A stretch of DNA of 34,371 nt, from positions 1 to 34,371 of the forward strand of contig CAJXTO010000002.1 of NCBI GenBank assembly GCA_913061245.1, read 5' to 3'. Shown one piece after another: positions 20,120-28,185 of the stretch. The notes under the pieces were generated by a model. That model searched no databases. It was not told where the DNA came from and saw only the letters and a program-made list of their open reading frames with translations. Made by a program: the position numbers and the translations under genes. Each line of letters begins with the position of its first letter. Within the stretch, counting starts at the first letter, position 1. Source of the stretch: an uncultured Oceanospirillales bacterium (GTDB lineage: Bacteria; Pseudomonadota; Gammaproteobacteria; Pseudomonadales; Litorivicinaceae).

Positions 20120-21379
20120 TTACGGCGCGATATGCAGTCCATTAATCCAAGACCCCATCACCCTCCCAGGTAATGTTTGTCCAAATAATGGGCTGTTCGT
20201 TCCAGCGCTCAACCAATGGTCTTGGTCGTAAGTTGTTGAGCCATTTGGATCAAAAAGTACGCAATCAGCAGGATTGCCATATTGAACCGAGCCGAGCTCT
20301 CTCTGGTTAATCACTTGGGCTGCTTTACTCGTCATCGCTAGCAGCGACTGTTCAAAAGATAATTCACCGCTTTGATCGAGTTTGAGAAGAAGTTGGATGA
20401 CACCTTCAATCAGGCTCATTCCCTTTTCTGTTTCTGGGAATGGAGCGAGTTTTGCCCCTGTCTCATGCGGCGAGTGATCGGAAACGATTAAATCAATGGT
20501 TCCGTCGACCACCCCAGCGATCAGGGCCAGTCGATCGTCTTCCGTTCGCAGTGGACGCTCGAGATGGAAATTCGGGTCGAGATTGACGATGGCCTGCTCG
20601 GAATACAATAAGTGACCCAAGGTCACGTCACAGGTGATTTGAAGGCCTTTTGCTTTGGCTTCGCGAATACGATCGACTGATGTTTTGGTCGTGATGCGGG
20701 AAAAATGCGCACTCACTCCGGTGGCTTCGACCAAGTCAAGGTCGGCGCCAAGGCCTAAGGTTTCAGATAAAGGAGAGTTCAGCGAGAGGCCAAGTCCAGT
20801 TCCGATTTGTCCCGCATGTGCGCACCCCCCAGCAAAGTCACGTGATTCAGAATCCAATATCACTCGGATACCGAGGCTTTGGGCATATTTCAGGGCGTTG
20901 AATTCAATTTTTCTCGAGGTAAATGGGCGATTACCTTGCGCTAAAGCCACACATCCAGCGTCGACAAGCGCTGCCATCTCGGACAAGTGAGTACCGCCAC
21001 CACCTTGGGTTAGCATAGCGGTAGGCAGAACTCGGCAATGGCCTGATGCATTGGCTCGCTCAAGAACAAGGCGAACGTCCGCCGGAGAGTCGACTACTGG
21101 GTCTGTTGTTGGTGTTGCCACCACAGATGTGACACCTCCAGCAACTGCTGCTCGGGTCTCAGATGCAATCGTGCCTTTATGTTCGAGACCAGGCTCTCGT
21201 AAGTTCACCCTGAAGTCGATGAGACCGGGTACGAGCCAAGCCGCCTCTCCGTTGATCTCGGTTGCATCAGACAGGGTATTTGGATCAACGAATACGGCTT
21301 GGTCGATGCCGATCTCTGTCGCGCCATGCAAAGGGCTGCCTGGTGAGATGATTTGAACATTTCGGATGATCACACTCAC
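20120..21379 (-). CDS. pyrC': Dihydroorotase-like protein lacking canonical zinc ligands (PyrC' type)
   Basis: Amidohydrolase fold; zinc motif DxHxHxREPG replaced by [10 protein letters not shown]; downstream of pyrB. Confidence 0.88.
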
Positions 21380-22350
21380 GAATGACCCCCTTGCTGTGTC
21401 GACAATGTCATCGCCATGACAGCCATTCTGATCGCGATCCCATTGGTTACTTGATCGAGGATGACGGCTTGGGGTCCGTCGGCAACTTCATTAGCGATTT
21501 CAACACCTCGGTTGATCGGACCAGGGTGCATCACAATTGCGTTGTCTTTTGCGAGCGCTAGGCGCGACTCAGTCATACCGTAAAGATTAAAAAACTCGCG
21601 TTCACTCGGTAATAATGCGCTAGTCATCCGTTCTTTTTGTAGTCGGAGTAAGACCACCACATCGACGTCACGTAAGCCATCGTCGATATTGTGAAAGGTG
21701 TGCACACCGAGGTGTCCTAGATCAGAAGGCAGTAACGTGCCTGGACCGATGGCTCGAATATCAGGGCAACCCATGCCTCGAAGTCCATGAATCAGAGAGC
21801 GGGCGACGCGTGAGTGTTTAAGGTCACCAATAATTGCGACCGAGAGATTCGCAGGATCACCTTTGTGCTTCCTGATGGTCATCAAGTCGAGGAGTGCTTG
21901 AGTCGGGTGTGCGTGAGTTCCATCGCCTGCGTTGATGACTGCGATATTCGGAGTTACGCGATCGGCGATGAAAAACGGTGCTCCGCCAGCACTATGGCGA
22001 ACAACGAAGAGATCTGCCTGCATTGCTTCGAGATTTTTCAATGTGTCGAAGAGCGTTTCGCCTTTCGATGCGGAGCTTGTTCGAATATCGAGCGTGACAA
22101 CATCAGCACTTAATCGGTGAGCAGCGATATCAAAAGTGGTTCGAGTACGTGTTGAATTCTCAAAGAACAAATTTACAACCGTCTTCCCACGCAGCAGAGG
22201 AACCTTTTTCACGGGTTGTCCTTGCGAAGAAAGAAACGTTTCGGCGGTATCGAGAAGTTCAGTAATGAGGGATTTTGGAAGGCCTTCGGTCGTCAGGAGA
22301 TGTTTCAATCGTCCGTCTGGTGTGAGCTGGAGCGCAGCTGGACCGTGCAT
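21376..22350 (-). CDS. pyrB: Aspartate carbamoyltransferase catalytic subunit
   Basis: [45 protein letters not shown]. Confidence 0.97.
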
Positions 22351-22358
22351 GGCGTTCC

Positions 22359-22862
22359 TTATTCCGAGTCCGGGGTCATGAGCACTAATGGCTCAGGTCC
22401 GACTAGTTTACACCGCCCAACCCCCTCTTCGCCAAGAGATTCTCCAAGGAAAGTTGGTTCGATTGGTAATTCACGACCGCCACGGTCGAATAAAATGCCG
22501 AGATTGATTGCGCCTGGTCGTCCGTAGTCAAAGAGAACATTGAGGGCTGCACGAATGGTCCTGCCGGTAAACAATACGTCATCAATGAGCAAAATATTCT
22601 CGCCATTGAGCTGCTGAGGCATCCGGTTTGTCGTTCCCGACCGTTTGAGCCCGCTGGTCTCAAAGTCATCGCGATACAGTGAGATGTCGAGGGTTGCAGG
22701 TTCTTCCCATTCAAGGGCCTCGCATAGACGCGTAGCAACCCAAGCGCCACCTGTATGAATTCCGACCACCAATGGCGCACTATCAGCGTAGCCATTGCGA
22801 ACTTGGCTGATTAGGTTTTGCAGGGCGGCTTCAGTCGCCTGTTGAGAACGAATCTCATGCAT
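22359..22862 (-). CDS. pyrR: PyrR-type uracil phosphoribosyltransferase/pyrimidine operon regulator
   Basis: [16 protein letters not shown]...[25 protein letters not shown] at 22862, overlapping the ruvX stop. Confidence 0.94.
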
Positions 22863-23268
22863 GTTGCTCTCCAAGCCAGCGCTCAAGGATGACGCTTGCG
22901 GCTGTTGCGTCGAGTTTTCCATCTTGGTCGCCCGCTCTTCCTTGATAATTCAAATGTTCACGTGCTTCGCGGGTACTGTGGTACTCATCAATGTATGCTA
23001 CTTGTACACCAAATCGGCCGTGGATGCGTTGACCGAATTTTTTCGCGCGCTCAGCCATATCGCTCATCGCTCCATCTTCATGGAGCGGTAGTCCAACGAC
23101 AACAACATCCGGTTTCCATTCCGCTAAGAGCTTCTCTACGGCATCCCACTGGGGTGTTCCGTCTTTGGCTGGCAGGGCAGTAAGAGGGCTGGCTGTTTGG
23201 GTCAGGGTTTGCCCAGTTGCAACTCCGATGCGTGACAGCCCATAGTCAAAGCCGAGCGCCAATGGCAT
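22855..23268 (-). CDS. ruvX: Putative Holliday junction resolvase RuvX/YqgF
   Basis: LGFDYGLSRIGVATGQTLTQTASPL...VVVGLPLHEDGAMSDMA...YIDEYHSTREA. Confidence 0.95.
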   Translation of the reverse strand: MPLALGFDYGLSRIGVATGQTLTQTASPLTALPAKDGTPQWDAVEKLLAEWKPDVVVVGLPLHEDGAMSDMAERAKKFGQRIHGRFGVQVAYIDEYHSTREAREHLNYQGRAGDQDGKLDATAASVILERWLGEQHA

Positions 23269-23837
23269 TAGGCGTGGCCTGCACCTTGGGACAGTTGAAT
23301 GGGATCAATACCAAGCTGCGCCAGCGCAGCACGCTGCCGATCTGCAGTCGGAATCTGGAAAATTACATCAGCATCCCAAGGCACATTGATCCAAGTGTTA
23401 GCGGCCATTTCCGACTCCAATTGGCCTTCAGACCAGCCAGAATATCCCAAAATGAAAATGGCATCTCCGTGATTAAGCGCATCGATCGCCAGCGGCAATA
23501 CATCAGGGCTTGATGCGAGATAGAGCCCGTCGAGCACTTCCACCACATCATCTGTGATTGGATGATTGGAGAGTAAGAATCCGCGTTGAGGTTCGACAGG
23601 CCCGCCATTCATAACGGGTACATCGGGATCCAGGGCATCTGCCGCTTCAAGTCCGAGCTGCTCAAAAATTTCCTGAACAGAAAACTCGGTTGGCTTATTG
23701 ACAATAAATCCCATTGCGCCGGTTTCGCCATGCTCGCACATGAGTACCAGTGATGAGTCGAAAACGCCGTCTTTGAGATCTGGCATCGAGACTAAAAATT
23801 GGCCGTTAAACAGTGTTTGTCCTGAATCATCGCTCAT
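23268..23837 (-). CDS. algH: YqgE/AlgH family protein
   Basis: GQFLVSMPDLKDGVFDSSLVLMCEHGETGAMGFIVNKP; start may be at 23855. Confidence 0.94.
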   Translation of the reverse strand: MSDDSGQTLFNGQFLVSMPDLKDGVFDSSLVLMCEHGETGAMGFIVNKPTEFSVQEIFEQLGLEAADALDPDVPVMNGGPVEPQRGFLLSNHPITDDVVEVLDGLYLASSPDVLPLAIDALNHGDAIFILGYSGWSEGQLESEMAANTWINVPWDADVIFQIPTADRQRAALAQLGIDPIQLSQGAGHA

Positions 23838-23877
23838 GGATTGGATCTCTTTCACGAATGCATATACCTAGTTTAGC

Positions 23878-24831
23878 TCACTCATTAAAAAGTGCTTGGA
23901 AAAAGTCTTTCCCAATTGTTGTCCCCGCCTGTGCATCGATTTCTCGAACACAAGTCGGGCTGGTCACATTAATCTCTGTGAGATGGCCGCCAATGACGTC
24001 CAGTCCAACGAATAACAACCCGCGCTCCAAGAGAGTTGGACCGACAGTTTCAGCGATTTCTCGTTCGCGATCTGAAATCGGCATTGCAACTCCACGCCCG
24101 CCAGCGGCTAGATTGCCACGGGTTTCACCTTGCGATGGAATTCGTGCGAGAACATGTGAAATTGGTTGCCCGTGGAGTACTAGGACGCGCCGATCACCAT
24201 CGATAATTTCAGGCCGGTACTCTTGCGCCATGACGAGCCGAGACTCGTTCGGAGAGAGCGTCTCTAGAACTGCTCCGAGATTCAAGCCATCAGCGGTAAT
24301 TCGAAAGATTCCAGAGCCGCCCATGCCATCAAGCGGTTTCAGGATGATGTCGCCCTGTGTTTTTTGAAAGTTGCGGATGTCGTCGTGTTTCGATGAGACC
24401 ACTGTCTTTGGCATCAAAGCACTGAATTCCGTTGCGAATAGCTTTTCATTGCAGTCGCGAATCGCTTGAGGGTTGTTAACGACTTGTACCCCCAGGTGTT
24501 TGGCTCGCTCCAGAATGTGAGTGCCATACAAATATTCGCTATCAAATGGCGGATCAACACGGATTAAGATCACATCTAGACTGCTGAGCGATGCCTGAAC
24601 GGGATCGCCCAGAGAGGCAAAGTTGTCTTTTACGCCATCGATGACTTTGACCTCGTGCATGATGGCTTTCGCCTCACCGTGATCAATAGATAGCCCGTTC
24701 TTCGGGAGATACACAATCTCATGGCCAAGATCTTGTGCCGCTAACATCAGAGCAAAGCTGGTGTCTTTGTATGGCTTGATACCCTCGATTGGATCCATCC
24801 AGAATCCGATACGCTTGGTCTGTGTTCCCAC
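23878..24831 (-). CDS. gshB: Glutathione synthetase
   Basis: IGFWMDPIEGIKPYKDTSFALMLAAQ...ILKPLDGMGGSGIFRI...GLDVIGGHLTEINVTSPTC. Confidence 0.97.
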   Translation of the reverse strand: MGTQTKRIGFWMDPIEGIKPYKDTSFALMLAAQDLGHEIVYLPKNGLSIDHGEAKAIMHEVKVIDGVKDNFASLGDPVQASLSSLDVILIRVDPPFDSEYLYGTHILERAKHLGVQVVNNPQAIRDCNEKLFATEFSALMPKTVVSSKHDDIRNFQKTQGDIILKPLDGMGGSGIFRITADGLNLGAVLETLSPNESRLVMAQEYRPEIIDGDRRVLVLHGQPISHVLARIPSQGETRGNLAAGGRGVAMPISDREREIAETVGPTLLERGLLFVGLDVIGGHLTEINVTSPTCVREIDAQAGTTIGKDFFQALFNE

Positions 24832-24840
24832 GTGTCTTTC

Positions 24841-25548
24841 CTAGTATTGGCCGTATTGCTGTCCGAGCAAAGTGAGACCAACAATCGCTGCGGTCTCTGC
24901 TCTCAATATTCTGGGGCCAAGTGACATCGGTTTCACCTGCTTTTTTAAAAGGGTGTCGATTTCCGCATCACTAAAGCCACCCTCGGGACCGATCAACAAG
25001 AGTGACTCTTGTGCTGGATTGATTTGGACTGAGACTGTTGCTGGATGGGCGACAATTGATTGTTCGGGGAGTGGGAGCTCATTGAGTTGCGCTGGCTTCT
25101 GAAGGCGAGGAAGCCAGTTATTTTCTGATTGTTCGCATGCATTAACCAAAATTTCTTGCCAATGGCTCCACTTTTTTTCGAGTCGATCCGCTTTAGGTGG
25201 CGAATCCGTGAATTGTGTAATGATCGGCTGAATTGCAGTCACACCGAGTTCGGTTGCTTTCTGTAATGCCCAGTCAAAACGGTCTGATTTAATGAGTGCA
25301 AGGCCGAGTGTCACCGGCAGACGGTGATCTGGGGTCTCTGAAATATTAAGAATTTGGACAGTTGTTTCGCGTTTGCTGATATCTGTGATGATTGCTTGGC
25401 AAACACAGCCATTACCGTCAAAAAGCTCAATCTTTTGTTCTGTCTTCGCGCGTAAAACGCGTGAAAGATAGTGATGATTGCGTTCAGATAAAACCACCTC
25501 GCCTGTCGCGTGACCGAAGGTGTCCGCATACAGACGAGGGGTTCTCAT
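24841..25548 (-). CDS. rsmE: 16S rRNA (uracil1498-N3)-methyltransferase
   Basis: HHYLSRVLRAKTEQKIELFDGNG...LLIGPEGGFSDAEID...SLGPRILRAETA. Confidence 0.95.
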   Translation of the reverse strand: MRTPRLYADTFGHATGEVVLSERNHHYLSRVLRAKTEQKIELFDGNGCVCQAIITDISKRETTVQILNISETPDHRLPVTLGLALIKSDRFDWALQKATELGVTAIQPIITQFTDSPPKADRLEKKWSHWQEILVNACEQSENNWLPRLQKPAQLNELPLPEQSIVAHPATVSVQINPAQESLLLIGPEGGFSDAEIDTLLKKQVKPMSLGPRILRAETAAIVGLTLLGQQYGQY

Positions 25549-26960: not shown

Positions 26961-28124
26961 TTACAGCTTCGCGGCTGCGTCAGCTAGTGCTTGCGCGCGA
27001 TCTGTGCGCTCCCAAGTTAGATCCAAGTCATCGCGTCCAAAGTGGCCGTAGGCAGCTGTTGGGCGATAAATCGGGCGATTTAGATCGAGCATGGTTGAGA
27101 TTGCTCTCGGGCGCAAATCAAAGTGCGCGCGAACCAGCTGGTCCAATTGTGCGTTTGTGTAGTTTGATGTACCAAATGTCTCAACCCGAATTGATGTTGG
27201 TTCTGCGACGCCGATTGCGTATGACACTTGGACTTCACAGCGGTCTGCAAGGCCGGCCGCAACCAGGTTTTTCGCAACATAACGCGCAGCATAGGCTGCC
27301 GAACGGTCAACTTTCGATGGGTCTTTTCCAGAGAAGGCACCGCCGCCGTGACGTGCCATGCCGCCGTATGTATCAACAATGATTTTACGACCTGTAAGGC
27401 CTGCGTCACCAACAGGACCGCCGATGACGAATCGGCCGGTGGGGTTGATGTGGTATTTGGTTTGATCAGTGAGCCACGCTTCCGGCAACACAGGTGCAAT
27501 GATGTGTTCTTTCACTTCGCGCTGAAGTTGCTCTAACGATACGTCTTCATCATGCTGTGTTGAGAGAACAACAGCATCAATACCAACGATGGTGTCACCA
27601 TCGTATGCAAATGTGACCTGACTTTTTGCATCAGGACGAAGATATGGGAGGTCGCCATTTTTACGAACTTCAGCTTGGCGACGAACCAAGTTGTGCGAGT
27701 AATGAATTGGAGCAGGCATCAGGCTGTCTGTTTCATTGGTCGCGTAGCCAAACATCAAACCTTGGTCGCCAGCACCTTGCTCATGAAACTCTGTTTCATC
27801 AACGCCTTGTGCGATGTCTTGTGACTGCTTGCCGATACCGTTCAGTACCGCACATGTGTTGCCATCAAAACCCAGTGATGAATGATCATATCCAATATCC
27901 AGGACGACTTGGCGGATGATGTCTTCAATATCCACCCACGTATTGGTGCGTACTTCGCCAGACACGAGGACCAATCCAGTTTTAACCATCGTTTCGATGC
28001 CGGCACGTGTGTGTTTGTCGTCTGTAATCAATGCATCAAGGATCGCATCCGAGATCTGATCAGCCATTTTATCTGGATGGCCTTCAGATACAGATTCTGA
28101 GGTGAAATAGGTCAAATCGGTCAT
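26961..28124 (-). CDS. metK: S-adenosylmethionine synthetase
   Basis: [27 protein letters not shown]...[12 protein letters not shown]...[19 protein letters not shown]. Confidence 0.98.
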
Positions 28125-28157: not shown

Positions 28158-28185
28158 ATTGTATAAAGATATCTTTATATGTCAA
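28158..28185 (-). promoter_or_regulatory. Strong candidate sigma70 promoter of the metK-ahcY operon
   Basis: Minus strand: TTGACA (28185-28180), 16-nt spacer, TACAAT (28163-28158). Confidence 0.75.
28162..28179. promoter_or_regulatory. Perfect 18-bp palindrome in the metK promoter spacer (candidate operator)
   Basis: TATAAAGATATCTTTATA equals its own reverse complement; lies between -35 and -10 and overlaps the first two bases of the -10. Confidence 0.75.

What the first reader, a model, noticed from the sequence alone, without database searches (positions are those of the whole stretch)
28158..28185. Perfect palindrome filling the spacer of the metK-ahcY promoter: candidate SAM-cycle repressor operator
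Minus strand reads TTGACA-TATAAAGATATCTTTA-TACAAT. The 18-bp perfect palindrome TATAAAGATATCTTTATA lies directly between a consensus -35 and a 5/6 -10, where a repressor would block RNA polymerase. The first two genes, metK and ahcY, are core SAM-cycle enzymes. Established knowledge: the ArsR-family regulator SahR represses metK/ahcY/metF/metH-type genes in diverse Proteobacteria in response to S-adenosylhomocysteine. No regulator gene is in this window, so SahR identity is inference.
Basis: partly seen in the sequence, partly recalled or inferred. Interest (0 to 1): 0.62.

Follow-up and report, generated by a model that had tools for sequence, protein, structure and literature searches.

The report
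SahR operator in metK-ahcY promoter
The perfect DNA palindrome in front of the metK-ahcY genes is almost certainly the docking site of SahR, a known repressor that senses S-adenosylhomocysteine; the marine gammaproteobacterial genus that carries it uses the alphaproteobacterial version of regulator and site in place of the one its relatives have.

Summary
In the window's own genome (a Litoricola/Litorivicinus MAG, OM252 group) the only other copy within 3 mismatches lies 15 bp upstream of an ArsR-HTH + methyltransferase gene that heads a sahR-metF-metH operon. Across 15 genus metK promoters the 28-bp promoter/operator block has 26 invariant positions, against 7 of 67 in the flanks. The site fits the 20-bp consensus I derived de novo upstream of alphaproteobacterial-type sahR genes, A(C/T)ATAAAGATATCTTTAT(G/A)T, not the operator of the other Pseudomonadales, ATATCAAAATATTTTGATAT. 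The canonical gamma SahR gene, which sits between tkt and metK in other families, is absent here; the regulator groups with alpha-type SahR and shares its recognition helix. A relative outside the family carries both systems, each with its own operator. So this is an ordinary SahR regulon, but with regulator and operator swapped as a pair. In four relatives a third operator copy precedes a SAM-V riboswitch. SAH response and DNA binding are inferred, not shown.

The parts
28162..28179 (.). SahR operator: 18-bp perfect palindrome TATAAAGATATCTTTATA (20-bp register 28161-28180)
   Evidence: matches alpha-type SahR consensus; conserved in genus
28180..28185 (-). -35 hexamer TTGACA of the metK promoter
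   Evidence: invariant in 15 genus loci
28158..28163 (-). -10 hexamer TACAAT (TATAAT in some relatives); its first 2 bases are also the last 2 of the palindrome
26961..28124 (-). metK, methionine adenosyltransferase, first regulated gene
   Evidence: TIGR01034, 604 bits
25551..26942 (-). ahcY, adenosylhomocysteinase, 18 bp after metK, presumed same transcript
   Evidence: TIGR00936, 524 bits
28276..30255 (+). tkt, transketolase, divergent neighbour; in other families of the order the canonical sahR gene lies between it and metK, here it is absent
23878..25548 (-). rsmE and gshB, co-directional and nearly touching ahcY; possible read-through targets
   Evidence: co-transcription is inference

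Best explanation
28162-28179 is the operator of SahR, an ArsR-family repressor with a fused methyltransferase-like domain encoded elsewhere in the same genome (contigs C95/C91) at the head of a sahR-metF-metH operon. A SahR dimer bound across the spacer and the edge of the -10 blocks RNA polymerase at the metK promoter; when S-adenosylhomocysteine rises it binds SahR, the repressor leaves, and metK-ahcY and sahR-metF-metH are made, clearing SAH and rebuilding methionine and SAM. Regulator and operator are the alphaproteobacterial type and have replaced the tkt-sahR-metK type of other Pseudomonadales. Shown: sites, gene context, conservation, operator type, recognition-helix type, absence of the canonical regulator. 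Inferred: binding, repression, SAH as ligand, direction of gene transfer.
For: Second and only other genomic copy (1 mismatch) at C95:828-845, 15 bp upstream of an ArsR-HTH + Methyltransf_11 gene; metF and metH follow. Five other genus genomes each have the pair, one at metK and one at sahR. Footprint: 26/28 promoter-operator positions invariant in 15 loci versus 7/67 in flanks. De novo consensus from 49 alpha-type sahR upstream regions, excluding this genus, gives ACATAAAGATATCTTTATGT; window score p 2.4e-11 per position. Recognition helix GQSQPRVSRHLKLL is shared with alpha-type SahR, canonical is vkQpgMSHHLKVL. Published SahR core regulon is sahR, ahcY, metH, metF, metK with a 20-bp palindrome that differs between alpha and delta/gamma (PMC4239095).
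Against: No binding, expression or ligand data for this organism. The published logo (Figure S1 of PMC4239095) could not be read, so the motif comparison rests on my own derivation. The sahR gene of the window's genome is split over two contigs. The AU test does not formally exclude grouping this SahR with the canonical gamma one (p 0.096).
Confidence: 0.92

Rival explanations
1. The site is bound by SahR but SahR here responds to SAM (as proposed for SamR) or acts as an activator.
For: A SAM-sensing relative, SamR, is proposed in Xanthomonadales (PMC4239095).
Against: Targets are the SAM cycle including ahcY, the pattern tied to SAH sensing in that paper; the site covers the spacer and -10 edge of a near-consensus promoter, a repressor position; SamR-type sequences fall on their own long branch with a different helix.
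Confidence: 0.1
2. Another regulator (MetJ, MetR or an unknown one) owns the palindrome.
For: Any dimeric regulator can use a palindrome; no binding was shown. No tool result favours this (one search gives the MetJ and MetR motifs).
Against: MetJ uses AGACGTCT repeats and MetR ATGAA-N5-TTCAT (PMC4239095); neither fits. The only other site sits on the sahR promoter, as expected for autoregulation.
Confidence: 0.03
3. Chance AT-rich palindrome with no function.
For: A perfect palindrome of this length turns up in about 15% of simulated windows.
Against: Invariance across diverging genomes, exactly two copies in the right places, and match to an independent matrix.
Confidence: 0.01

Closest known systems
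SahR regulon of Alphaproteobacteria (sahR-metF-metH and relatives)
   Same: ArsR + methyltransferase regulator, gene order sahR-metF-metH, operator A(C/T)ATAAAGATATCTTTAT(G/A)T, same recognition helix
   Different: Found here in a gammaproteobacterial family, and controlling metK-ahcY at the place where the native sahR gene lies in related families
Canonical gammaproteobacterial SahR (between tkt and metK; PA0547-like)
   Same: Lies at the same metK-ahcY promoter region in related families
   Different: 23-30% identical, operator ATATCAAAATATTTTGATAT, absent from all nine Litorivicinaceae genomes tested
SamR of Xanthomonadales
   Same: ArsR-family relative of SahR, metK among its targets (PMC4239095)
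   Different: 24-bp motif, separate branch, different helix; ahcY not a target

Membership tests
SahR regulator/operator system | Regulator has ArsR-type HTH plus SAM-methyltransferase-like domain | tested here: met
   HTH_5 47 bits and Methyltransf_11 70 bits
SahR regulator/operator system | About 20-bp palindromic operator of SahR type | tested here: met
   De novo consensus and score; published logo itself not readable
SahR regulator/operator system | Operators at core targets: sahR, metH, metF, metK, ahcY | tested here: met
   metK-ahcY site and sahR-metF-metH site
SahR regulator/operator system | Uses SAH hydrolase (ahcY) pathway | tested here: met
   ahcY present
SahR regulator/operator system | SAH is the ligand that releases the repressor | not testable with these tools
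   needs a binding assay
SahR regulator/operator system | Direct sequence orthology to the experimentally studied Desulfovibrio SahR | not tested
   Desulfovibrio SahR was not fetched; the link runs through alpha-type SahR and PMC4239095
Canonical gamma (Pseudomonadales) SahR | Gene between tkt and metK, operator ATATCAAAATATTTTGATAT | tested here: not met
   gene absent and operator differs
Alphaproteobacterial-type SahR | Groups with alpha SahR in a tree | tested here: inconclusive
   Nested inside with SH-aLRT 96-97; AU test against grouping with canonical gamma p 0.096
SAM or SAH riboswitch control of metK | Rfam riboswitch in the metK leader | tested here: not met
   no Rfam match in the window at gathering thresholds

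The most novel reading that the evidence does not exclude
Litorivicinaceae replaced the native gammaproteobacterial SahR and its operator by a horizontally acquired alphaproteobacterial sahR-metF-metH cassette, with the operator at the metK-ahcY promoter changing in place to the new type; a relative outside the family still carries both systems, which looks like an intermediate state, and in some family members the acquired operator is stacked on a SAM-V riboswitch so that one transcript could read both SAM and SAH.
Probability: 0.65. Interest if true: 0.55.

Novelty: new member of a known kind. Interest (0 to 1): 0.42.

Why it matters
It turns a guess from bare sequence into a regulon prediction for a marine group (OM252/Litoricola) that includes a non-MAG genome record, LSUCC0096. 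It also offers a clear natural case of a regulator and its operator being exchanged together at an essential promoter, with a genome holding both, which makes the route of regulatory replacement testable.

Tried and rejected
Weaker third matches in the genus were checked: the GTAAAGATGTCTTTAT site lies inside a gene that looks like trpB, that of G000 C85 inside a 1304-aa ORF, that of G154 inside a 711-aa ORF that looks like pnp (gene names by eye); all treated as coding-sequence coincidences. A perfect 16-mer in G055 lies near a glycosyltransferase, not SAM-cycle genes, and is treated as chance. Many single-mismatch hits in other families of the order are scattered and were not pursued. No riboswitch in the window. 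Viral collections hold no relative of the SAM-V-linked small protein nor the operator + SAM-V string.

Full report
OBSERVATION. The minus strand carries TTGACA (28185-28180), a 16-nt spacer and TACAAT (28163-28158), and the perfect 18-bp palindrome TATAAAGATATCTTTATA occupies 28162-28179. It fills the spacer and overlaps the -10 by two bases. It is the strongest sigma-70-like site in the region, 11 of 12. The genes downstream are metK and ahcY, with tkt divergent. A perfect palindrome of this size alone is not rare (about 15% of simulated windows), so its meaning depends on the following tests.

OWN GENOME. The window's genome (1.58 Mb, 206 contigs, 90% complete) holds exactly two matches within three mismatches: this one and TATAAAGATATCTTTATG at C95:828-845; the reversed control pattern gives none. 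The second lies 15 bp upstream of a gene for an ArsR-type HTH fused to a methyltransferase domain. The gene runs off C95 and continues on C91, where metF and metH follow; in the near-complete relative G014 the order sahR-metF-metH is intact on one contig. At sahR the palindrome again lies between promoter-like hexamers, TTGAAC and TATTAT, with the start codon only a few bases after the -10, so the mRNA may be leaderless (inference).

CONSERVATION. All five other genus genomes in the order sample have exactly two such sites, one at metK and one at sahR. In 15 metK promoters of the genus, aligned without gaps, 26 of 28 positions of the -35/palindrome/-10 block are invariant, against 7 of 67 in the flanks (mean identity 0.99 against 0.72). 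The sister genus keeps a degenerate palindrome at the same place (ATATAAGGATTTGCTTATAT).

WHICH OPERATOR. I derived motifs de novo upstream of two sets of sahR genes. Canonical Pseudomonadales sahR (22 loci, all beside metK and many with tkt on the other side) gives ATATCAAAATATTTTGATAT, which contains the ATC-N10-GAT published for gamma SahR (PMC4239095). Alpha-type sahR (49 loci, Litoricola excluded; two come from Steroidobacteraceae and one from a Terriglobia MAG) gives ACATAAAGATATCTTTATGT. The window site is the second type: 31.7 of a possible 34.9 bits, p about 2.4e-11 per position.

WHICH REGULATOR. Named relatives show that the genus is Litoricola/Litorivicinus (records LSUCC0096, HIMB30), the OM252 group (PMC8269220 is a study of that group, seen here only as a search hit). 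In the phylum sample the closest relatives belong to another class (about 136-248 bits), well above the best other gammaproteobacterial hits (113 bits or less). The named relatives outside the family are two further gamma MAGs (47-50% identical) and then mostly Acetobacteraceae/Rhodospirillales. A search with the canonical gamma SahR finds no ortholog in nine Litorivicinaceae genomes, only the alpha-type protein and lone methyltransferases. The tree nests the family inside alpha-type SahR with SH-aLRT 96-97, but an AU test against grouping with canonical gamma gives p 0.096, so transfer is likely rather than proven. The recognition helix agrees with the operator type: GQSQPRVSRHLKLL in both Litoricola and alpha-type, vkQpgMSHHLKVL in canonical gamma.

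INTERMEDIATE. G048, of another family of the order, carries both: canonical SahR between metK and tkt with a perfect gamma-type operator, and the alpha-type sahR-metF-metH with a perfect alpha-type operator.

MECHANISM. SahR represses SAM-cycle genes and responds to SAH in Desulfovibrio, and was predicted across Proteobacteria with core targets sahR, ahcY, metH, metF and metK (PMC4239095, PMC8877191). Here the operator covers the core promoter of metK-ahcY, so steric block of RNA polymerase, relieved by SAH, is the natural reading. Binding, repression and ligand are inferred. Genes after ahcY (rsmE, gshB and further) are packed in the same direction and may share the transcript; this was not tested.

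SIDE FINDING. In four relatives (G147, G149, G155, G159) a third operator copy sits just upstream of a SAM-V riboswitch (RF01826: 38.9, 41.1, 30.9 and 37.8 bits; gathering score 41, so only one reaches it), which directly precedes the start codon of an uncharacterised small protein. SAM-V was described from marine alphaproteobacteria and Bacteroidetes (PMC6061858, PMC2704228). SahR (SAH, transcription) over SAM-V (SAM, translation) would read both metabolites on one transcript. The window's own genome shows no SAM-V.

VERDICT.

Noticed in passing
L180:2486-2925, L185:2055-2494, L190:78-517, L177:2047-2534: Third SahR-type operator directly upstream of a SAM-V riboswitch (RF01826, 31-41 bits, gathering 41) in four Litoricola genomes; in three the leader precedes an uncharacterised ~115-aa protein (MSYIHDLTTTALNLID..., no Pfam or PHROG match, nothing credible in NCBIfam) next to an ABC transporter; in L177 the genes that follow are different and also unknown.
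   Followed up: partly
L237:2534-2553 and L078:3881-3896: Genome G048 carries two complete SahR systems, canonical gamma (metK locus) and alpha-type (sahR-metF-metH), each with a perfect operator of its own type.
   Followed up: yes
L189:491-506: In a sister-genus genome a perfect operator core lies upstream of metH, with another reading frame between sahR and metH.
   Followed up: partly
L087 and L091, downstream of sahR: In two Litoricola genomes metF/metH after sahR look reduced or missing (metF match stops early, pdxB follows within about 500 bases).
   Followed up: no
L107, about 21-41 bases upstream of sahR at 1825: A Steroidobacter MAG, also gammaproteobacterial, has an alpha-type sahR-metF-metH with an alpha-type operator (ATATAAGGACATCCTTATAT).
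   Followed up: no
window 20120-25548 (-): rsmE, gshB, yqgE and, further down, pyrB run co-directionally and nearly touching after metK-ahcY; if co-transcribed, glutathione and pyrimidine genes would sit under the same operator.
   Followed up: no
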